The translations under genes and the position numbers were made by a program. From positions 1 through 29,393 of the IMG/VR virus record IMGVR_UViG_3300043409_001530: 29,393 nt of DNA; one strand, given 5' to 3'. Under the pieces are notes generated by a model. It saw only the letters and a list, made by a program, of their open reading frames with translations, was not told the origin of the DNA and ran no database searches. Source of the DNA: a virus. Positions 1 to 26,314 of this stretch are shown here, one piece after another (position 1 is the stretch's first letter; every line of letters starts with the position of its first letter).

Positions 1-148
1 GATGATCATTATCTGCCCTCTCGCGCCACCAATTCTGTGATGCGGTCAGCGCGGCAACCCGCGCCTCTAGTTCTGCGATGCGTAATTGCATTCTTTGATA
101 TTCGGCCCTTGCAGAATACATCGTTGGATGATTGTCCCAAGGTATCAT
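1..148 (-). CDS. Small coiled-coil protein, C-terminus cut by window edge
   Basis: This open frame starts at the ATG read leftward from base 148 and leaves the window after 49 codons. The visible protein begins MIPWDNHPTMYSARAEYQRM and then has a heptad-like segment (RIAELEARVAAL). The first 24 residues are identical to those of the gene at 1358-1648, and the two genes share 82 identical bases that include the ribosome binding site. The sequence ahead of the start is AGAGGTGACGAA, the junction used throughout this array. It is the downstream-most member of the leftward early operon seen here. Function is unknown; the only supportable description is a small, probably helical, oligomerising protein and a diverged paralogue of its neighbour. 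Confidence 0.7.
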   Translation of the reverse strand, partial: MIPWDNHPTMYSARAEYQRMQLRIAELEARVAALTASQNWWRERADNDH

Positions 149-159
149 TTCGTCACCTC
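78..159. repeat. 82-bp direct repeat, copy 1
   Basis: Bases 78-159 are identical to 1578-1659, exactly 1500 bases apart. The repeat covers the ribosome binding site, start codon and first 23-24 codons of two paralogous small genes. Identity stops within the codons of the I-(A/E)-E-L-E motif. Confidence 0.95.
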
Positions 160-160
160 T

Positions 161-232
161 TTAGCGAAAAAACAATATCGTTATAAGAATAATTAGAACG
201 ATAATAATTGCCATCGTAAATCTCCAATTCAT
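161..232 (-). CDS. 23-residue single-membrane-segment peptide
   Basis: A short frame starts with the ATG that overlaps the stop of the 229-486 gene (ATGA) and ends in TAA at 161. The peptide is MNWRFTM followed by a hydrophobic run of I, V, L and T (about residues 7-22) and a final FFR. That is long enough to cross a membrane once. The GAGGTGACGAA ribosome binding site lies at the end of the upstream gene, and the next gene's own copy follows directly after this stop. The exact fit between two junctions is the main reason to believe it. Function is unknown; membrane insertion is inferred from composition. Confidence 0.55.
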   Translation of the reverse strand: MNWRFTMAIIIVLIILITILFFR

Positions 233-486
233 TTCGTCACCTCTTCCAGATATTCAGCCGCTTTCATGTCCTCATCCAGACAATAACAACCCTCAACCGT
301 GTCGTTGTGTCCCTGTGCGTAGCCTGCTTTAAACGCGGCTACCGCTTGCCGCTCCAGTTCTGCAATGCGCTGTAGCAACCTGTTTAGTTCTTTTGCTGCG
401 CTTACTTCGCGATCTGAGTTTGGTCTAACGCCCCATCCTGCTGTCGTGGCATTTATGTAAAAATCGCGTGGTGGATTACGTTTCAT
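229..486 (-). CDS. Small coiled-coil phage protein
   Basis: An 85-residue protein with a predicted helical middle (LNRLLQRIAELERQAVAAF, about residues 34-52) and a short C-terminal segment with two cysteines (CYC). It ends in EEVTK because its last codons contain the Shine-Dalgarno sequence of the next gene. Its start overlaps the stop of the 483-701 gene by four bases. The RIAELE motif is shared with most other proteins of this array and is encoded by nearly the same bases each time. No known family is recognised. Early timing is inferred from the operon with ssb and the recombination genes. Confidence 0.65.
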   Translation of the reverse strand: MKRNPPRDFYINATTAGWGVRPNSDREVSAAKELNRLLQRIAELERQAVAAFKAGYAQGHNDTVEGCYCLDEDMKAAEYLEEVTK

Positions 487-701
487 CCCGTCACCTCTTC
501 TGGCTCATCCTTATAAAACTCTTCTTCGATTCTCGGTTTTGGTCGCTGTGCGCGTAGTTCGTAATGCGTAGCGGTTTCAGCGTCTATTCCGTTCCAATAA
601 TTGTCAGCAAGTCTGTCGTAGTCAATTCGGTCAGGGTCACCGCCTGATCTCCAAACTTCATAAAATACATCTGCTTCATAATCCCTTCTTTTATCACTCA
701 T
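483..701 (-). CDS. Small acidic hypothetical protein
   Basis: A 72-residue acidic protein rich in Asp, Glu, Tyr and Arg, with the sequence DRIDYDRLADNYWNGI in its centre. It lacks the IAELE coiled-coil motif of its neighbours, so it is a different kind of cassette in the same array. It ends in EEVTG, which places GAGGTGACGGG just ahead of the next start, and it overlaps genes on both sides by four bases. No family is recognised. Small acidic early phage proteins sometimes mimic DNA or bind host enzymes, but nothing here shows that. Confidence 0.65.
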   Translation of the reverse strand: MSDKRRDYEADVFYEVWRSGGDPDRIDYDRLADNYWNGIDAETATHYELRAQRPKPRIEEEFYKDEPEEVTG

Positions 702-961
702 TCCGTCACCTCTTCCTTGATTGTTTCAAGCCCACAATTACATTCTGGATGAAATGCGTAGTGTTGTTGCACAATTGCGCAATCTCTCTTGTGTTGGACA
801 TATGGACGTATTTTGTCCAGTCGCGCTTCCAGTTCTGCGATGCGCGTCAGCAGTTCGCCACGGTCTTCATCCGCTAAATGCAACTCATCAGTGAATATGA
901 TTTTCCCGTAAGCATTTCTGTTCTTGGTGTCATGCCGCGCTTTGATCTCTTCAATGCTCAT
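698..961 (-). CDS. Small coiled-coil protein with Cys/His-rich tail
   Basis: An 87-residue protein. The N-terminal half is charged; residues about 35-50 carry the array motif (LLTRIAELEARLDKI); the C-terminal half holds His and Cys residues (HKRDCAIVQQHY, then HPECNCG), which could bind one metal ion. This C-terminal pattern (C-A...H...HxxCxCG) resembles one found in many short phage proteins of unknown role. It ends EEVTE with the embedded ribosome binding site and is coupled by ATGA to both neighbours. No function is assigned. Confidence 0.65.
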   Translation of the reverse strand: MSIEEIKARHDTKNRNAYGKIIFTDELHLADEDRGELLTRIAELEARLDKIRPYVQHKRDCAIVQQHYAFHPECNCGLETIKEEVTE

Positions 962-1128
962 TTCGTTTCATCTTCCTTTGGTATTGGTACACCATCATGA
1001 CATTCAGGACACTCCAGAATGGTTGCAATACTTGGAAATACAGCTACCCACTCTCGGCCACAATGGTTACAGCAAATCAATGAAACGGTATGCGGCCTAA
1101 CAGAGTCTATGTCCGTGACTGTTGCCAT
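958..1128 (-). CDS. 56-residue zinc-ribbon-like protein
   Basis: The frame opens at the ATG read leftward from 1128, two bases after the stop of the upstream gene, and closes with a TGA that overlaps the next start. The protein has two paired-cysteine knuckles, CCNHCGREW near residues 19-27 and LECPECH near 39-44, the spacing expected of a small zinc ribbon. It ends EDETK, a variant of the EEVTK ending, so its junction has a weaker Shine-Dalgarno sequence (GAAGATGAAACG). It fills what would otherwise be a gap in a tightly packed operon. The partner is unknown. Confidence 0.65.
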   Translation of the reverse strand: MATVTDIDSVRPHTVSLICCNHCGREWVAVFPSIATILECPECHDGVPIPKEDETK

Positions 1129-1130
1129 AT

Positions 1131-1361
1131 TCACTTCGTCACCTCTTTGAGTGCCGCATTAAGATGGGAGACTGCCACCCATTTAGGTTCACCCCATGAT
1201 TTGTCAATACCCGTCACATCACTAATTTTATTGGCAGTCCAGCGTCGCAAGTCGCGTATACGCTCAACCCGCGCCTCCAGTTCTGCGATGTGCTTTTTTA
1301 ACTGGGTATTTTCTTGTCGCGCTTCATCACGTTCATCTTGCAGCAAGTCCAGTAAGTTCAT
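1131..1361 (-). CDS. Small coiled-coil protein
   Basis: A 76-residue protein that is almost entirely helical in appearance at its N-terminus: an acidic/basic heptad stretch (DLLQDERDEARQENTQLKKH) followed by IAELEARVERI. The start MNLLDLL was chosen over an upstream ATG because AAAAGGTGACGAA precedes it and because it overlaps the stop of the 1358-1648 gene by four bases. It ends KEVTK. The C-terminal half contains ISDVTGIDKSWGEPKW. It most likely forms a parallel dimer or trimer through the coiled coil. Function unknown. Confidence 0.65.
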   Translation of the reverse strand: MNLLDLLQDERDEARQENTQLKKHIAELEARVERIRDLRRWTANKISDVTGIDKSWGEPKWVAVSHLNAALKEVTK

Positions 1362-1648
1362 TTCGTCACCTTTTCCCGATACCAACGATGGTCACGTTCC
1401 AAAATGTATTTTTTATCGTTGATGATTATTTCATACAGGTTTGGGTTTGTAAGTGCAGATGCATACCGCTCAACTATCTTTTCCAGTTCTGCGATGCGCT
1501 TATTTGCTGCAATATGCTCATCTTTCCAGTATTGTGATGTGCGCTCTCTGGTTTTTAATTCAGCCTCCAGTTCTTCAATGCGTAATTGCATTCTTTGATA
1601 TTCGGCCCTTGCAGAATACATCGTTGGATGATTGTCCCAAGGTATCAT
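1358..1648 (-). CDS. Small coiled-coil protein, paralogue of the leftmost gene
   Basis: A 96-residue protein. Residues 1-24 match the leftmost gene exactly; after the motif IEELEAELKT the two diverge, though TSQYWKDE here resembles ASQNWWRE there. A second heptad segment, KRIAELEKIVERY, follows at about residues 49-61, and the end is EKVTK. Start and stop overlap the neighbouring genes by four bases each. The pattern suggests duplication or recombination between array members, with the break inside the shared coiled-coil codons. No catalytic motif is visible. Confidence 0.65.
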   Translation of the reverse strand: MIPWDNHPTMYSARAEYQRMQLRIEELEAELKTRERTSQYWKDEHIAANKRIAELEKIVERYASALTNPNLYEIIINDKKYILERDHRWYREKVTK

Positions 1649-1659
1649 TTCGTCACCTC
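1578..1659. repeat. 82-bp direct repeat, copy 2
   Basis: Second copy of the repeat at 78-159, without mismatches. It spans the junction and 5' end of the 1358-1648 gene and the last codons of the metallopeptidase gene. Confidence 0.95.
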
Positions 1660-2520
1660 CACTCTCGCTATCCCGTCAACAAAACTCAAATACGCCACCG
1701 CAAACCCATTCGGCAACGTCCGCTTATCCCCCGGCATCATGTCCTCATATTTGAGCGTGGCGTTTGCAAAGTCGCCCTCCAGATCAGGATGCCCGTTGGG
1801 AAATAATTCATGGATGTACAGTTTTTCCGCCACGTTCTCGCCCGAATCAAATGGGTAGTCAAGGCGGGTGGATAGGTACACGTTCTTGCCATCATTCCGC
1901 AAAACTACGTGCTTGTATTCATCAGGATGCAGGCCAGCCATCTCGACGGGCGCAATTAGCACTTGCTGGCTTGATACAATCGTCACCGACTCCTTTTCAC
2001 GAAACCACCCCATGCAGACGATCAGCGGCGAGATCATGCCGACGATATGGTCGTTGCTGCCCATGATGCTGGTATTGTCGCCCAGCTTGTCGACCTTGCC
2101 ATTGCGGATGCTGTGGCTATGCCCCAACCCGCTGCCGAAGGTTCCCTTACCATTGTGAAGGACCTCATGAATCGTGGTCTTATCACCGCACCCATACGTG
2201 TCGAATGCAACGCTTTCATTGCCGCCGCCGCCCTCGGCCTCACCGCAGCGGTTGCCGCCGATGTTGCCGCCCAGGATGTGGCGGAAGAATGGATCGAAGC
2301 CACTCGTGCCGCCCGCCTTGATAAAGGCATCAATATCCTTCCGCGCCCATGTCGGGCCAGAGGTGGGCTGCGTACCTTCGTAGGTGAAGCCGCGCACATC
2401 GAAAGACTGGTCCGAGTAAAAATCCAGATAGCGTTTCAGTTTCTTCGCACGGTCCACAGGATCGAACTTGACCTGTGACCCGGCGCGGTGGAATATGCCG
2501 ATGGTGTTTTTATCTTTCAT
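1645..2520 (-). CDS. Gametolysin (M11)-like zinc metallopeptidase
   Basis: A 291-residue protein with the zinc-site signature HEVLH (His118, Glu119, His122). Asn123 follows, and then SGLGHS with His134 as the likely third ligand. A Met-turn-like GDNTSIMG comes at 147-154 and GW at 171-172. In the M11/M6 families the order is HExxHNxGLxH, then a D-x-S/T-x-MG turn, then LGW; here six residues (GKGTFG) are inserted between Asn123 and Ser130. Removing them restores HExxHxxGxxH. A glycine-rich stretch lies at 84-100. There is no signal peptide, so the protein is probably cytoplasmic or carried in the particle. The C-terminal 110 residues look like a separate beta-rich domain. It sits in the early operon, ATGA-coupled on both sides. 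A substrate cannot be inferred. Confidence 0.6.
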   Translation of the reverse strand: MKDKNTIGIFHRAGSQVKFDPVDRAKKLKRYLDFYSDQSFDVRGFTYEGTQPTSGPTWARKDIDAFIKAGGTSGFDPFFRHILGGNIGGNRCGEAEGGGGNESVAFDTYGCGDKTTIHEVLHNGKGTFGSGLGHSHSIRNGKVDKLGDNTSIMGSNDHIVGMISPLIVCMGWFREKESVTIVSSQQVLIAPVEMAGLHPDEYKHVVLRNDGKNVYLSTRLDYPFDSGENVAEKLYIHELFPNGHPDLEGDFANATLKYEDMMPGDKRTLPNGFAVAYLSFVDGIARVEVTK

Positions 2521-2521
2521 T
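2501..2521. repeat. 21-bp direct repeat at start of peptidase gene
   Basis: Bases 2501-2521 equal 2677-2697. Both copies encode the start and MKDKNTI of two adjacent but otherwise unrelated genes. Confidence 0.9.
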
Positions 2522-2696
2522 CAATAATCTCCGGCAGCGTCTGTATATCCTGCATTTTTCCGCAACCGTCACAGCGGAACCCTATCATGTCACGCCGTCC
2601 TTCGCGCCAGCAAAAAACCTTTCCGTAGTTCCACTTTAATAGATGTGCGATCCAGTGCATAAATAGCTTCACGCCTATGGTGTTTTTATCTTTCAT
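2517..2696 (-). CDS. 59-residue CxxC mini-protein
   Basis: The start is the ATG at 2696, preceded by ACAGGTGAAGAA; a longer frame would run into the ssb gene. The protein begins MKDKNTIG, the same eight residues that begin the peptidase next door. It then has a hydrophobic/aromatic stretch (LFMHWIAHLLKWNYGKVF) and a CDGCGK knuckle at about residues 42-47, preceded by Cys29. It may bind one metal ion. Its stop overlaps the start of the peptidase gene, so the two are translationally coupled. No family recognised. Confidence 0.6.
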   Translation of the reverse strand: MKDKNTIGVKLFMHWIAHLLKWNYGKVFCWREGRRDMIGFRCDGCGKMQDIQTLPEIIE

Positions 2697-2697
2697 T
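2677..2697. repeat. 21-bp direct repeat at start of CxxC mini-protein
   Basis: Copy of 2501-2521, 176 bases away, at the start codon of the upstream gene. Confidence 0.9.
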
Positions 2698-2716
2698 TCT
2701 TCACCTGTTGTTAAAT

Positions 2717-2782: not shown

Positions 2783-3169
2783 TCAAAAGGGCGTGTCATC
2801 GTCGATAAAGTCGGGTTGCGGTTCTGGCTTTCGGAATCCTGCCGCCTTTGGCTTGTCCTCAGTCGGCTTGCCGCCCTGCAACGCAACCTCCGCAACCTTC
2901 AGTTCCAGGCTTGTGCCTGCTTTCCCGTCCTTTTCCCATGTGCGAAGATCAAGCTCACCGGATACCGTTACGGGCGTTCCCTTCGTTACGTGCGGCGCTA
3001 ATGCCTCACCACGCTTGCCCCACATTGAACACTTGATGAACAGTGCGTGCTTCTTATCGCCGTAACCGACATCAGACGCAACGGTGAACCCAAGAACGGC
3101 ATCACCACCCGCCGTGTACCTCTGCTCGGCGTCTGCCGTGACGCGCCCTACTGCTGTAAATACGTTCAT
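2783..3169 (-). CDS. ssb: Single-stranded DNA-binding protein
   Basis: A 128-residue protein with the OB-fold layout of bacterial and phage SSB. It starts MNVFTAVGRVTADAEQRYT, continues through VLGFTVASD, ALFIKCSMWGKRGEAL and GTPVTVSGEL, and has a disordered Pro/Lys-rich linker and the acidic tip DDDTPF, which docks partner proteins. The length is typical of short phage SSBs. It coats single-stranded DNA during replication and recombination. Its neighbours, the exonuclease and ERF annealing protein, make a standard recombination set. Its stop is followed by an 86-base structured gap before the next gene. Confidence 0.93.
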   Translation of the reverse strand: MNVFTAVGRVTADAEQRYTAGGDAVLGFTVASDVGYGDKKHALFIKCSMWGKRGEALAPHVTKGTPVTVSGELDLRTWEKDGKAGTSLELKVAEVALQGGKPTEDKPKAAGFRKPEPQPDFIDDDTPF

Positions 3170-3170
3170 T

Positions 3171-3800
3171 TCAATCCTCTGCCATCTTGCGGAATGTTAA
3201 AACCATTGCGTCCAGTTCACTGATAAACCGATCAGTCTCGGCCTTGATCTCTGCGATCTTCGCATCATCCCGCCAGACCTTGACGAGGTGGTGCATCTTG
3301 AAAGCGTCCGGGTGGTATGAGAAGAAATCGCACCACTGCGTACCTGTGACCCACATCTGCCCTTGAACCTGTAACTGATATTCAGCAGGCAGACCGCCAT
3401 CCAGCACGTAGCTGATATGTGTCTCAAGGTTTGGGTTTTTGAACTCAACCAGTCCCCTGTCCTCAATCATCCCGTCAACGCTTGCGCCTACGCGCTTGTC
3501 CTCGTCCAGGTAGATAAGGCCGTGCTGCATTACGTCATGCCCGGTCAGCATCGAATAATAGTCCCTGCTTTCCGGTTCACGCCGCGTACCTTCTGCCATT
3601 GCCGCGTTCGTATATCCCTCTGCCGCCGGTCTGCCGGTCACAATGGAATTGGCAAGCGTGATCATGTACTTCTTGCGGGTCAGTGATGGCTCAGAACCGC
3701 GACCTTTCGACATGACCGCCTTAAACTGCGAAGCGGTCACGACTGTTGCTCTGGCGTCCAGCCATTCCTGACTGCCCTGCTCTGCTGGGTGAATAATCAT
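3171..3800 (-). CDS. YqaJ/lambda-exonuclease-type recombination nuclease
   Basis: A 209-residue protein of the YqaJ viral recombinase family (PD-(D/E)XK fold). The N-terminal EQGSQEWLDARATVVTASQF is the characteristic W-x-x-x-R...TAS signature. The active-site pieces are GASVDGMI (Asp of motif II) and LVEFKNPN (E-x-K), followed by EYQLQVQGQMWVTG. The start at 3800 was taken because it overlaps the ERF gene stop by four bases (ATGA) and a GG-rich site precedes it; a start 30 codons earlier would lie inside ERF. The family degrades one strand of DNA ends to give 3' tails for annealing by the neighbouring ERF protein. Confidence 0.88.
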   Translation of the reverse strand: MIIHPAEQGSQEWLDARATVVTASQFKAVMSKGRGSEPSLTRKKYMITLANSIVTGRPAAEGYTNAAMAEGTRREPESRDYYSMLTGHDVMQHGLIYLDEDKRVGASVDGMIEDRGLVEFKNPNLETHISYVLDGGLPAEYQLQVQGQMWVTGTQWCDFFSYHPDAFKMHHLVKVWRDDAKIAEIKAETDRFISELDAMVLTFRKMAED

Positions 3801-4507
3801 TTGGCTACCCTCTTCTTGGCTGCGATAGCCTTCTGTGCAACTGGCAACCGGAATACCGGCATATCTTCCAGAGACTGAATCTTCATCCATGTGCAGAACT
3901 TCTGTTCATCGGCATCAACCGCCGCCAGTTCATCCCGCAGGGTTGCCGCGACCTTTTTGCTGATCGTTTCAACGCTCGCACGGTAGCCGTCATCATCCTC
4001 ATCGGAAGCAACCAGGTTGAGCGCGTTCATCAGCGCGTACCGTTTCGCGTATGAGTTCGCTGAACCCACCTTCTGCGTGTCGTTTACCTTCATGGCATCG
4101 TCTATACAGGCCGCGAACTCGGACACCTCAGAATGACCGTCACGGTGCGTCACAGTGCATACTGCGGTGATCACCGTGTCACCCGTCATGTAGGTGCTGA
4201 ACCTTACCGCCAGACCGCAACGCTCAAGGATCGGCCTGATCGTCTTGATCACGGTATCCAATGGCGCGTAAACGTACCTGTCAGCCTTACGCGTCTTCTC
4301 AATCGTCGGACATGACGCTTGGAAGTCTGCCAGAGCGCGACTGAAGGCTATTCTGGCCTCGTTTGCCTGCCACCGCTCCTGAAGGGTAAGCATTTTGTCT
4401 AACTGGTCTGCATCAACGCCACGCTCGATCATAGCCTGCATTAACTGCATCGGTGTCGGTGTATGTTGCACCTCGGCGGGTGCGGTCAATTCGAATGTTT
4501 TGTTCAT
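3797..4507 (-). CDS. erf: ERF-family single-strand annealing protein
   Basis: A 236-residue protein. The core has the ERF signature: FSRALADFQASCPTIEK, then YVYAPLDTVIKTIRPIL..GLAVRFS, the glycine/serine turn KVGSANSYAKRYALMNALN, and the acidic DEDDDGY. The start MNKTFEL at 4507 is preceded by GGAGATTGCTAAT; the stop of the upstream gene is two bases away. ERF proteins form rings that anneal complementary single strands and, with the exonuclease and SSB beside it, drive recombination and genome circularisation. The C-terminal 45 residues are rich in Lys and Ala and are not part of the conserved core. Confidence 0.92.
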   Translation of the reverse strand: MNKTFELTAPAEVQHTPTPMQLMQAMIERGVDADQLDKMLTLQERWQANEARIAFSRALADFQASCPTIEKTRKADRYVYAPLDTVIKTIRPILERCGLAVRFSTYMTGDTVITAVCTVTHRDGHSEVSEFAACIDDAMKVNDTQKVGSANSYAKRYALMNALNLVASDEDDDGYRASVETISKKVAATLRDELAAVDADEQKFCTWMKIQSLEDMPVFRLPVAQKAIAAKKRVAK

Positions 4508-4508
4508 A

Positions 4509-4745
4509 TTAGCAATCTCCATCGTAATCACGTTCAGGCATTTCCACTTCGCGCCCGTTACGCATTACAGCCGCTTCGCAGCAGTCGGAAACATACTCAG
4601 GGCTGGAATCGAATCCCTTTTGTCCCCAGTATTCGTACTCGCCTATGCCATTGTCCACGACGATGCCCTTGCAGGGTTGTAGGCAGTTGTCGCAGTAATC
4701 CTCATCTTCTGGCAGATTGTCAGCATCATAGACTTTCATGGTCAT
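4509..4745 (-). CDS. Small Cys-rich, probably metal-binding protein
   Basis: A 78-residue acidic protein with cysteines in two groups, YCDNCLQPCKG at about residues 17-27 and SDCCEAAV near 53-60, ending in DGDC. CxxCxxxC plus CC is compatible with a zinc knuckle. The start at 4745 overlaps the previous stop (ATGA); an ATG two codons later is also possible, and neither has a strong Shine-Dalgarno sequence. It lies directly ahead of erf in the same operon. Function unknown. Confidence 0.65.
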   Translation of the reverse strand: MTMKVYDADNLPEDEDYCDNCLQPCKGIVVDNGIGEYEYWGQKGFDSSPEYVSDCCEAAVMRNGREVEMPERDYDGDC

Positions 4746-5256: not shown

Positions 5257-5285
5257 ATAGTAAACCCGCTTAATGCAGTTTGCAA
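5257..5285 (-). promoter_or_regulatory. Leftward early promoter (candidate)
   Basis: Read on the minus strand: TTGCAA (5285-5280), 17 bases, TACTAT (5262-5257). This is a good sigma70 match just upstream of the first gene of the left operon and back to back with the rightward promoter. Confidence 0.65.
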
Positions 5286-5305
5286 GTGTTTTTCGCACAT
5301 TTCGC

Positions 5306-5334
5306 TTGTTTGTTTATATTTCGAGTGCTATGAT
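5306..5334 (+). promoter_or_regulatory. Rightward early promoter (candidate)
   Basis: TTGTTT (5306-5311), 17 bases, TATGAT (5329-5334), ending 31 bases before the start of the HTH gene. TTTCG occurs three times in this interval (5291, 5300, 5319) and could mark operator half-sites between the two promoters. Confidence 0.65.
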
Positions 5335-5365
5335 TCACTCACAGTACACAACAGAGGAAAACGCA

Positions 5366-5578
5366 ATGATCTCAAACACCATCAGGAAAGGTATCAAAAT
5401 CGCACTGATTCAGGCCGACGAGAATGTCACTTCAGCAGCCAAGCGTGCAGGCATAGGCCGGTCAAGCATTTACCGCTTCTGCAAAGGGTCGAATGATATT
5501 AACGTCAACAAGCTGGATGCATTTTGCAACAAAGGGCTGGGCAAGACGCTGGCTGAAATCCTGGAGTTGGGCAAATGA
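5366..5578 (+). CDS. Small helix-turn-helix regulator (Cro-like position)
   Basis: A 70-residue protein with a helix-turn-helix at about residues 21-41 (VTSAAKRAGIGRSSIYRFCKG), followed by the segment that completes a lambda-repressor-like or Fis-like fold. The start at 5366 is preceded by AGAGGAAAACGCA; earlier in-frame ATGs lie over the promoter and were rejected. As first gene of the rightward operon and divergent from the leftward operon, it occupies the place of Cro in lambdoid phages and probably represses one or both promoters. No larger CI-type repressor is encoded nearby. Confidence 0.8.
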   Translation: MISNTIRKGIKIALIQADENVTSAAKRAGIGRSSIYRFCKGSNDINVNKLDAFCNKGLGKTLAEILELGK

Positions 5579-24998: not shown

Positions 24999-25586
24999 AT
25001 GAAAGATGATATCTGCCCACTGGAGTTGATGGACGCGCCCAATGAGCCGTTCCTGTGGGCGTTGGTTGCAAAGAATGTTTTTTCGGGTAACAAGCAACGA
25101 CCGGCGGCGTGGGCCGAGTTCGGCGTGGCCGGTGGTCAGAGTGCAACGTATTTCCTGACGGCGGCGACCCCCTACACCACGTTTCACCTGTTCGATTCCT
25201 ACCTGGGATTACCGGAGGAATGGGACTTCAACGGCGATATAAATCACATAGGGCGTTATGCCCAACCGCATCCGCCGAGGATCGAGGATACGCGGGTGGT
25301 CTGGCACAACGGCATGTTTGCCGATACGTTGCCGGTAGCCGATATGGGAACATTGGACTTCATTCACATCGACTGCGATATATACTCTTCAACGAAAACG
25401 GTGTTCGACCACATACAGGTGCGCGAAGGCACGCTGATCCTGTTCGACGAATACTGGGGTTATCTGGATTATCGGAACCATGAACGTAAAGCGTTTTTGG
25501 AATGGTCGGAACGCACCGGATACGAACTGGAATGGATGGGAAAAAACCGCAGTCAGGCAGCAGGGATCATAAGAAGCTCGCCATAG
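24999..25586 (+). CDS. TylF/macrocin-O-methyltransferase-like SAM methyltransferase
   Basis: A 195-residue class I methyltransferase: motif I AEFGVAGGQSATYF (residues 39-52), then HLFDSYLGLPEEW (63-75), LDFIHIDCDIYSSTKT (119-134) and LILFDEYWGY (146-155). HIDCD...S-T-K-T and the later FDE are the metal-binding and catalytic elements of TylF-like sugar methyltransferases. It has no signal or membrane segment. It lies in the head module, 38 bases behind the decoration gene, and overlaps a DUF115-like gene. Modification of a glycan or polypeptide of the particle or host is the inferred role. Confidence 0.75.
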   Translation: MKDDICPLELMDAPNEPFLWALVAKNVFSGNKQRPAAWAEFGVAGGQSATYFLTAATPYTTFHLFDSYLGLPEEWDFNGDINHIGRYAQPHPPRIEDTRVVWHNGMFADTLPVADMGTLDFIHIDCDIYSSTKTVFDHIQVREGTLILFDEYWGYLDYRNHERKAFLEWSERTGYELEWMGKNRSQAAGIIRSSP

Positions 25587-26314
25587 TTTGCGGCGCACCA
25601 TCGAGCGAGATGGAAGCACCGTTTGAGAATCCCGAGTACGAGGTCTGGGTTCTGGGCAACCGTTCGCAGAACTATCCTCGCTTCGACCGGATATTCGAGA
25701 TACACGATGACCTGACGGAACATGACCCCCGCTACGCGCAGTGGCTGGTGGACAAGGGCGTACCGATGGTGGTCGGCGGAAATTTCCCTCTGGAAGCTTC
25801 CCACATAGAAAAGTTCCCCTACGACAGGTCGGTCGAGTTATTTGGCAGCCTGTACCTGACCTCAAGCCCGGCGATGATGGTCTGTTATGCCATCCTGCAC
25901 GGCTACATGCACATCGAGCTTTATGGCGTAGACCTCGCCATAGATGACCACGAATACTTCTGGCAGCGTCCCTGCATGGAAGCGTGGATTGGCTTTGCGA
26001 GAGGAAGAGGACACACGGTCATCCTTCACCGGCTTTCTCCCGTATGTCGGGCGAGTTATGTCGAGGGCATGGACTGTGGTGGCAAGCCGGACTTCTCCTG
26101 CCCGCCGTTCACCGAGGACGAGTTGCTGAAACTCGCCTCCAAGCACACGCAGAAGATAGACGCTGCGACCAACGAGATCAACCGTCTGAAGGGCATCATC
26201 CAGAGCAACGATGGAGCCAGACAGGCGTATCTGCACCTTGCCAGAACCGCAAGGGCAATCGAGGCCGGTGTTGTCATCGAGACACTGGACGTTACCGTCA
26301 GACACAAGGAATGA
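25532..26314 (+). CDS. MptE/DUF115-like protein, substrate unknown
   Basis: A 260-residue protein from the ATG at 25532, 55 bases inside the methyltransferase gene in another frame; in-frame ATGs at 25502 and 25609 are alternatives. The nucleotide-binding-like front KKLAIVCGAPSSEMEAPF, then EVWVLGNR, IFEIHD, SSPAMMVCYAILHGYMHIELYGVDLAI and EYFWQRPCMEAWIGFARGRG match a protein group common in phage structural regions, related to 6-hydroxymethylpterin diphosphokinase MptE-like/DUF115 proteins. The C-terminal 70 residues are a coiled coil (LASKHTQKIDAATNEINRL). It may be a glycan or nucleotide transferase acting with the methyltransferase; activity is unknown. Confidence 0.6.
   Translation: MDGKKPQSGSRDHKKLAIVCGAPSSEMEAPFENPEYEVWVLGNRSQNYPRFDRIFEIHDDLTEHDPRYAQWLVDKGVPMVVGGNFPLEASHIEKFPYDRSVELFGSLYLTSSPAMMVCYAILHGYMHIELYGVDLAIDDHEYFWQRPCMEAWIGFARGRGHTVILHRLSPVCRASYVEGMDCGGKPDFSCPPFTEDELLKLASKHTQKIDAATNEINRLKGIIQSNDGARQAYLHLARTARAIEAGVVIETLDVTVRHKE

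What the first reader, a model, noticed from the sequence alone, without database searches (positions are those of the whole stretch)
1645..2520. Gametolysin-like zinc peptidase with a split active-site motif in an early operon
The product has HEVLH, then six inserted residues, then SGLGHS, then GDNTSIMG. Removing the insert gives an exact HExxHxxGxxH plus Met-turn as in M11/M6 peptidases. Such enzymes are mostly secreted by bacteria or made by algae. Here there is no signal peptide, and the gene lies between tiny coiled-coil genes and ssb in a phage early operon. It might cleave a host or defence protein, or a rival's product.
Basis: partly seen in the sequence, partly recalled or inferred. 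Interest (0 to 1): 0.62.

Follow-up and report, generated by a model that had tools for sequence, protein, structure and literature searches.

The report
Phage M11-type metalloprotease with lengthened zinc motif
An uncultured phage carries, among its early genes, a stripped-down and divergent relative of gametolysin-type zinc proteases (normally secreted enzymes) in which six extra residues split an otherwise strictly spaced zinc-binding motif; it looks like an enzyme for use inside the infected cell, but its activity and target are unknown.

Summary
Window 1645-2520 (-) encodes 291 aa with HEVLH, GKGTFG as the extra residues, SGLGHS and GDNTSIMG. The protein alone hits no Pfam, PHROG, NCBIfam or PADLOC family. 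A DNA pattern for the motif pair fetched 53 relatives (50 bacterial, 3 phage). A profile built from them, without the window protein, matches the unaltered protein over residues 36-290 (E 5e-17; best of 10,000 shuffles 2.6). Of 45 aligned members, 42 match Pfam Peptidase_M11. An AlphaFold2 model on that alignment (pLDDT 79.5, pTM 0.80) finds metzincins first in the PDB. All 53 relatives have the third His exactly 6 residues after the second; here it is 12. It also has Leu where 52 of 53 have Gly. Zinc ligands, Glu119, Met-turn, Arg219 and His237 are kept. Unlike 46 of 50 relatives it has no hydrophobic leader. Its first 25 nt duplicate the neighbouring gene's start, and its end lies in a 15-nt box repeated at 9 gene joints, so it sits like an inserted cassette in a P22-like left operon. 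Best reading: a captured M11-type peptidase domain, probably active on a protein inside the infected cell (inferred). Phage M11 genes are rare, not unique.

The parts
1645..2520 (-). M11-type metzincin-like gene, 291 aa (P0001)
   Evidence: ORF; profile of 53 relatives matches residues 36-290, E 5e-17; AF2 pLDDT 79.5, pTM 0.80
2155..2169 (-). HEVLH, residues 118-122 (zinc ligands H118, H122; general base E119), in predicted helix 112-122
   Evidence: invariant H118 E119 H122 N123 in alignment A3; these were in the search pattern; helix
2134..2151 (-). six extra residues GKGTFG (124-129) that split HExxHxxGxxH
   Evidence: absent from 53 of 53 relatives; gap in A3
2119..2133 (-). SGLGH, residues 130-134: turn Gly131 and third zinc ligand H134
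   Evidence: H134 invariant in A3 although not in the search pattern
2059..2082 (-). GDNTSIMG, residues 147-154, Met-turn
   Evidence: G147 D148 M153 G154 invariant in A3 (part of the search pattern)
1648..1998 (-). C-terminal all-beta part (residues 175-291), kept in the family; R219 and H237 nearly invariant
   Evidence: strands in the model, block pLDDT mostly 90-98
2497..2521 (-). 5' joint: first 25 nt of the gene region duplicate the start of the neighbouring 59-aa gene (2673-2697)
   Evidence: 24 of 25 identical, similarity ends sharply on both sides
1645..1659 (-). 3' joint: box GAGGTGACGAAATGA, encodes the last residues EVTK, the stop and the overlapping start of the next gene
   Evidence: 9 copies at gene joints (<=3 mismatches), all minus strand within 2.6 kb; 10 matches in all against 0.88 expected in the window
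1563..1659 (-). 97-nt repeat (copy at 63-159, 97% identical) covering the start of the downstream coiled-coil gene and the joint box
   Evidence: family D4
2517..2696 (-). 59-aa gene with CxxC, upstream of and overlapping (ATGA) the M11-type gene
1358..1648 (-). 96-aa coiled-coil gene, downstream, start overlaps the M11-type stop
   Evidence: weak coiled-coil matches only
2783..3169 (-). ssb
   Evidence: phrog_44, 8e-34
3171..3890 (-). YqaJ/RecE-type exonuclease
   Evidence: phrog_149, 2e-38
3797..4531 (-). Erf-type annealing protein
   Evidence: phrog_155, 2e-38

Best explanation
The gene is a bare M11-type (gametolysin-like) metzincin peptidase domain captured by a P22-like phage into the accessory end of its left (early) operon. 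Capture removed the leader that secreted relatives have, and the gene was joined to the operon through short shared sequences at both ends. The most likely mode of action is a zinc endopeptidase that stays in the host cytoplasm early in infection and cuts a particular host, defence or rival-phage protein. Shown: homology to M11 over nearly the whole length, retention of all catalytic residues, the insert, lack of a leader, the operon position and the repeat joints. Inferred: zinc binding with the longer loop, activity, cytoplasmic action, timing, target.
For: Profile match E 5e-17 with the unaltered protein. 42 of 45 aligned members hit PF05548. Catalytic residues invariant, R219 and H237 kept. 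Model pLDDT 79.5 and pTM 0.80 with metzincins as the nearest solved folds and a giant-virus protein of the same two-part build (A0A3G5A2V9, E 5.7e-14, TMq 0.73). No leader against 46 of 50 relatives. Operon with ssb, exonuclease, Erf, arranged as in the P22-like phage CBW1004C-Prop1. 5' and 3' joint repeats. None of 56 phage loci that share the exonuclease has an M11-type gene within the flanks held, which marks it as an accessory gene. Its GC3 (0.69) is that of the core genes, not of the small cassette genes (0.34-0.47).
Against: Six residues split a motif whose spacing is fixed in 53 of 53 relatives, and Gly121 is Leu; this could abolish zinc binding. The protein fails Pfam's M11 threshold on its own. 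No substrate evidence. The two nearest phage relatives both lie in the virion/lysis block, which points to lysis or the virion rather than early intracellular action. No promoter evidence for early expression (chance level).
Confidence: 0.45

Rival explanations
1. It is a lysis- or virion-associated protease: it is made in the cell without export, is freed by lysis or carried in the particle, and loosens surface proteins or matrix of host or neighbouring cells, as gametolysin does for algal walls and as the prophage metzincin Mtz does for Listeria lysis.
For: The other phage M11-type genes lie between virion genes and lysis genes (L022, L023: next to SU10-type portal/capsid genes and an endolysin-like gene; L021 with a leader). 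Listeria mtz-tim lies downstream of holin-lysin in prophages and sensitises cells to lysis (PMC8235301).
Against: The window gene is not in the late block but in the left operon with ssb/exonuclease/Erf, has no leader, and lacks the extra ~280 C-terminal residues of L022 and L023.
Confidence: 0.2
2. It is a catalytically dead or decaying M11-type domain (binding protein or relic): the insert and the G121L change spoil the zinc site.
For: Insert in the most conserved segment, unique among 53 relatives; Leu for Gly121 and for Tyr146; long branch in the tree.
Against: Open frame of 291 codons with all ligands, Glu119, Met-turn, R219 and H237 intact; leishmanolysins carry 62-residue and longer inserts before the third His (PMC11957388) and the Leishmania enzyme is active (own knowledge).
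Confidence: 0.22
3. It regulates the phage's own programme by cutting a repressor (its own or a rival's), as ImmA/IrrE proteases do.
For: Cytosolic position, left operon of a P22-like genome with a Cro-type gene at 5273-5578.
Against: ImmA/IrrE are a different family (M78); no repressor gene was identified in the window; no partner gene is conserved with M11 in the other phages.
Confidence: 0.08
4. The insert is an assembly or sequencing artefact and the true protein has a canonical motif.
For: Only one copy of the sequence is known; no reads are available here.
Against: 18 extra in-frame bases are not a typical error, and the repeat search lists no duplicate of that stretch nearby.
Confidence: 0.05

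Closest known systems
Peptidase family M11 (Pfam PF05548, gametolysin and bacterial relatives)
   Same: Homologous over residues 36-290, HExxH, third His, Met-turn, GD before the Met-turn, C-terminal beta part with near-invariant Arg and His
   Different: Third His 6 residues later than in all 53 relatives, Leu instead of Gly121, no leader, below Pfam's own cut-off, phage early operon
Phage M11-type proteins of L022, L023 (SU10-like phage contigs) and L021
   Same: Sequence relatives; with L022 the best pairwise match (25.7% over 284 columns, E 3e-11); shared SSQQ..P.E stretch; L022 and L023 join P0001 in the tree (95/59, long branches)
   Different: Those are 508-665 aa, in the virion/lysis block, with an uninterrupted motif; L021 has a clear leader
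Leishmanolysin family M8
   Same: Metzincin with extra residues before the third zinc His (62 in Leishmania, more in some T. cruzi groups; PMC11957388)
   Different: There the insert follows the turn Gly; here it precedes it. No sequence match to M8 was found
Mtz of the Listeria prophage mtz-tim locus (PMC8235301)
   Same: Metzincin of phage origin carried as an accessory gene
   Different: Mtz is secreted, paired with a TIMP-like lipoprotein, near holin-lysin; no such partner here
Start-associated sequences of cluster K mycobacteriophages (PMC3203893) and lambdoid boundary sequences
   Same: Short repeats at gene starts or joints in phage operons (comparison from titles and own knowledge)
   Different: Here the box is 15 nt, contains the ribosome site and the overlapping stop/start, and is confined to 2.6 kb of one operon

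Membership tests
Peptidase family M11 (PF05548) | Passes Pfam's gathering score on its own | tested here: not met
   0 families for P0001
Peptidase family M11 (PF05548) | Full-length homology to M11 proteins (profile built without it) | tested here: met
   E 5e-17 over 36-290, shuffles no better than 2.6; 42 of 45 alignment members are PF05548
Peptidase family M11 (PF05548) | C-terminal beta part after the metzincin domain | tested here: met
   alignment and model
Metzincins, clan MA(M) | HExxHxxGxxH/D with fixed spacing | tested here: not met
   third His at +12 instead of +6
Metzincins, clan MA(M) | Two His, Glu, turn Gly, third His and Met-turn all present in order | tested here: met
   H118 E119 H122 G131 H134 M153
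Metzincins, clan MA(M) | Metzincin fold | tested here: met
   Foldseek PDB top hits are metzincins, E 7e-5 to 1e-3, TM about 0.35-0.39 of the query; moderate, and the model leans on metzincin relatives
Metzincins, clan MA(M) | Three His placed round one zinc | not testable with these tools
   model coordinates are not given
Metzincins, clan MA(M) | Zinc-dependent proteolysis | not testable with these tools
   bench test
Leishmanolysin M8 | Insert between turn Gly and third His; M8 sequence | tested here: not met
   insert lies before Gly131; no M8 hit
Listeria-type mtz-tim pair | Adjacent TIMP-like lipoprotein and leader on the metzincin | tested here: not met
   no leader; neighbours are coiled-coil and CxxC small genes

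The most novel reading that the evidence does not exclude
A cytosolic, early-expressed phage metzincin whose zinc site works with a lengthened motif (HExxHx(8)GxxH), acquired by cassette exchange through repeated gene-joint boxes, and used to cut a specific host defence or rival-phage protein.
Probability: 0.18. Interest if true: 0.72.

Novelty: new variant of a known kind. Interest (0 to 1): 0.45.

Why it matters
Metzincins are nearly always secreted and their zinc motif spacing is treated as diagnostic, so a motif search would miss this one. If active, it would show that the spacing before the turn Gly can stretch, and it would be a rare case of a metzincin built for use inside a bacterium, in the part of a phage genome where anti-host and anti-defence genes collect. 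It also gives a concrete example of how a phage operon may take in foreign genes at repeated translation-coupling boxes.

Tried and rejected
Plain single-sequence searches gave nothing: Pfam, PHROGs, NCBIfam, PADLOC, PDB sequences, phage and plasmid tblastn, IMG/VR and GTDB peptide patterns. Pieces before and after the insert also miss Pfam on their own. The single-sequence AlphaFold2 model was useless (pLDDT 31.5). In one search one of three queries was a fragment in which I had replaced the insert by one residue; it scored just under the M11 cut-off (20.7 against 21). I do not use it as evidence and did not repeat that kind of edit; with the unaltered protein replaces it. P0001 alone against 398 genomes of one phylum found nothing, but that search also missed a genome known to hold an M11 protein, so it is uninformative. 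A second viral scan for longer spacings found none. Relatives by terminase (L002-L008) do not share the early operon. An M8 (leishmanolysin) assignment was considered and rejected. The promoter/terminator scan was at chance level. The tree grouping of the phage proteins is only suggestive because long branches meet.

Full report
What was checked. The ORF at 1645-2520 (-) is real and reads as reported. HEVLH (118-122) is followed by N123, six extra residues GKGTFG (124-129), SGLGHS, and GDNTSIMG (147-154). The third candidate ligand H134 is 12 residues after H122, not 6.

Is it a family member or chance? Alone, the protein finds no family in Pfam, PHROGs, NCBIfam or PADLOC and no tblastn match in 50,697 phage or 72,556 plasmid records. 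I therefore scanned for a DNA pattern covering HExxHN and the Met-turn, with 13 to 23 residues between, so that both inserted and uninserted proteins could match. It gave 3 viral and 50 bacterial loci. A profile of those 53, without the window protein, matches the unaltered window protein at E 5e-17 over residues 36-290; 10,000 shuffles reach at best 2.6. In a 45-row alignment H118, E119, H122, N123, H134, G147, D148, M153 and G154 are invariant. Most of these were in the search pattern, but H134 was not, nor were the nearly invariant R219 and H237, all of which the window protein keeps. 42 of the 45 match Pfam Peptidase_M11 at E 0.001 or better. So the protein is an M11 homologue, although it fails Pfam's own threshold.

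Structure. AlphaFold2 on that alignment gave pLDDT 79.5 and pTM 0.80, with the active-site helix at 112-122 and a C-terminal all-beta part. The block that holds most of the insert has mean pLDDT 72; the block after it, with the third His, 90. Foldseek against the PDB returns metzincins first: Amuc_1438 and OgpA glycopeptidases, ADAM8, acutolysin C. TM-scores are modest (about 0.35-0.39 of the query), and the model leans on an alignment of metzincin relatives, so this is support rather than independent proof. In the viral library a giant-virus protein (Gaeavirus A0A3G5A2V9) matches the whole two-part build (E 5.7e-14, TMq 0.73).

The insert. All 53 relatives have the third His exactly 6 residues after the second; 40 of 53 have Gly at the turn position; 52 of 53 have Gly where the window has Leu121. 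The insert is therefore unique in this sample. A known parallel is leishmanolysin, with 62 residues between the turn Gly and the third His, and 150-270 in one T. cruzi group (PMC11957388). There the insert follows the Gly; here it precedes it.

Surroundings. The window is a 29,393-base virus record with a P22-like order: ssb, YqaJ/RecE-type exonuclease and Erf on the minus strand, a Cro-type gene, replication genes, a YbcO nuclease and a Q-like gene, then terminase, portal and a capsid gene (Phage_capsid_3) on the plus strand. The nearest annotated phage by portal is CBW1004C-Prop1 (44.6%), with integrase, small genes, YqaJ and ERF on the left strand. The M11-type gene thus lies where such phages keep accessory genes. 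None of 56 phage loci that share the exonuclease has an M11-type gene within the flanks held.

How the gene got there. The first 25 nt of the gene region repeat the start of the neighbouring 59-aa gene (24 of 25 identical), with similarity ending sharply on both sides. The 3' end lies in the box GAGGTGACGAAATGA, which holds a ribosome site and an overlapping stop/start; the box occurs at 9 gene joints within 2.6 kb, all on the minus strand, against 0.88 matches expected in the whole window. A 97-nt repeat (63-159 and 1563-1659) gives two different genes the same start. I read these as seams along which genes are exchanged, perhaps with help from the phage's own Erf and exonuclease (inference). 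The gene's GC3 (0.69) equals that of the core genes; the small genes have 0.34-0.47. The N-terminus has no hydrophobic segment, whereas 46 of 50 relatives have one upstream of the domain by a simple scan.

Other phages with M11-type genes. L022 and L023 (SU10-like portal and capsid genes) carry 665- and 606-aa versions next to lysis genes, and L021 a 508-aa version with a leader. None has a relative among the 50,697 phage records. Phage M11 genes are therefore rare but not unique.

Function. Most likely a zinc endopeptidase acting inside the infected cell (0.45). Rivals are a dead domain (0.22), a lysis or virion protease as the other phages suggest (0.20), a repressor-cutting regulator (0.08), and an artefact of the insert (0.05). 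Phage-origin metzincins that aid lysis are known (Mtz of Listeria, PMC8235301). Nothing here shows activity or target.

Verdict. A new variant of a known kind: homologous to M11, failing the strict metzincin spacing and Pfam's threshold, in an unusual setting. Interest 0.45.

Noticed in passing
window 145-2707 (-): The box GAGGTGACGAAATGA marks 9 successive gene joints (ribosome site plus overlapping stop/start), so the operon looks like a row of exchangeable small-gene cassettes.
   Followed up: partly
window 161-232 (-): A 23-codon ORF MNWRFTMAIIIVLIILITILFFR, a single hydrophobic stretch, sits between two joint boxes as a cassette of its own.
   Followed up: no
window 1-148 (-) and 1358-1648 (-): Two genes share the same N-terminus (MIPWDNHPTMYSARAEYQRMQLRI.ELEA) through a 97-nt repeat and then diverge.
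   Followed up: partly
L022:8467-10464 (-) and L023:8836-10656 (-): SU10-like phage contigs with large M11-type proteins between virion and lysis genes; their last ~280 residues look like a shared domain of unknown kind.
   Followed up: partly
L021:4362-5888 (+): Phage contig with an M11 protein bearing a leader, between virion genes and a gene resembling a lytic transglycosylase (judged by eye, not searched).
   Followed up: partly
window 24999-26314 (+): A TylF/Methyltransf_24-type methyltransferase and an unknown 270-aa gene lie downstream of the capsid gene.
   Followed up: no
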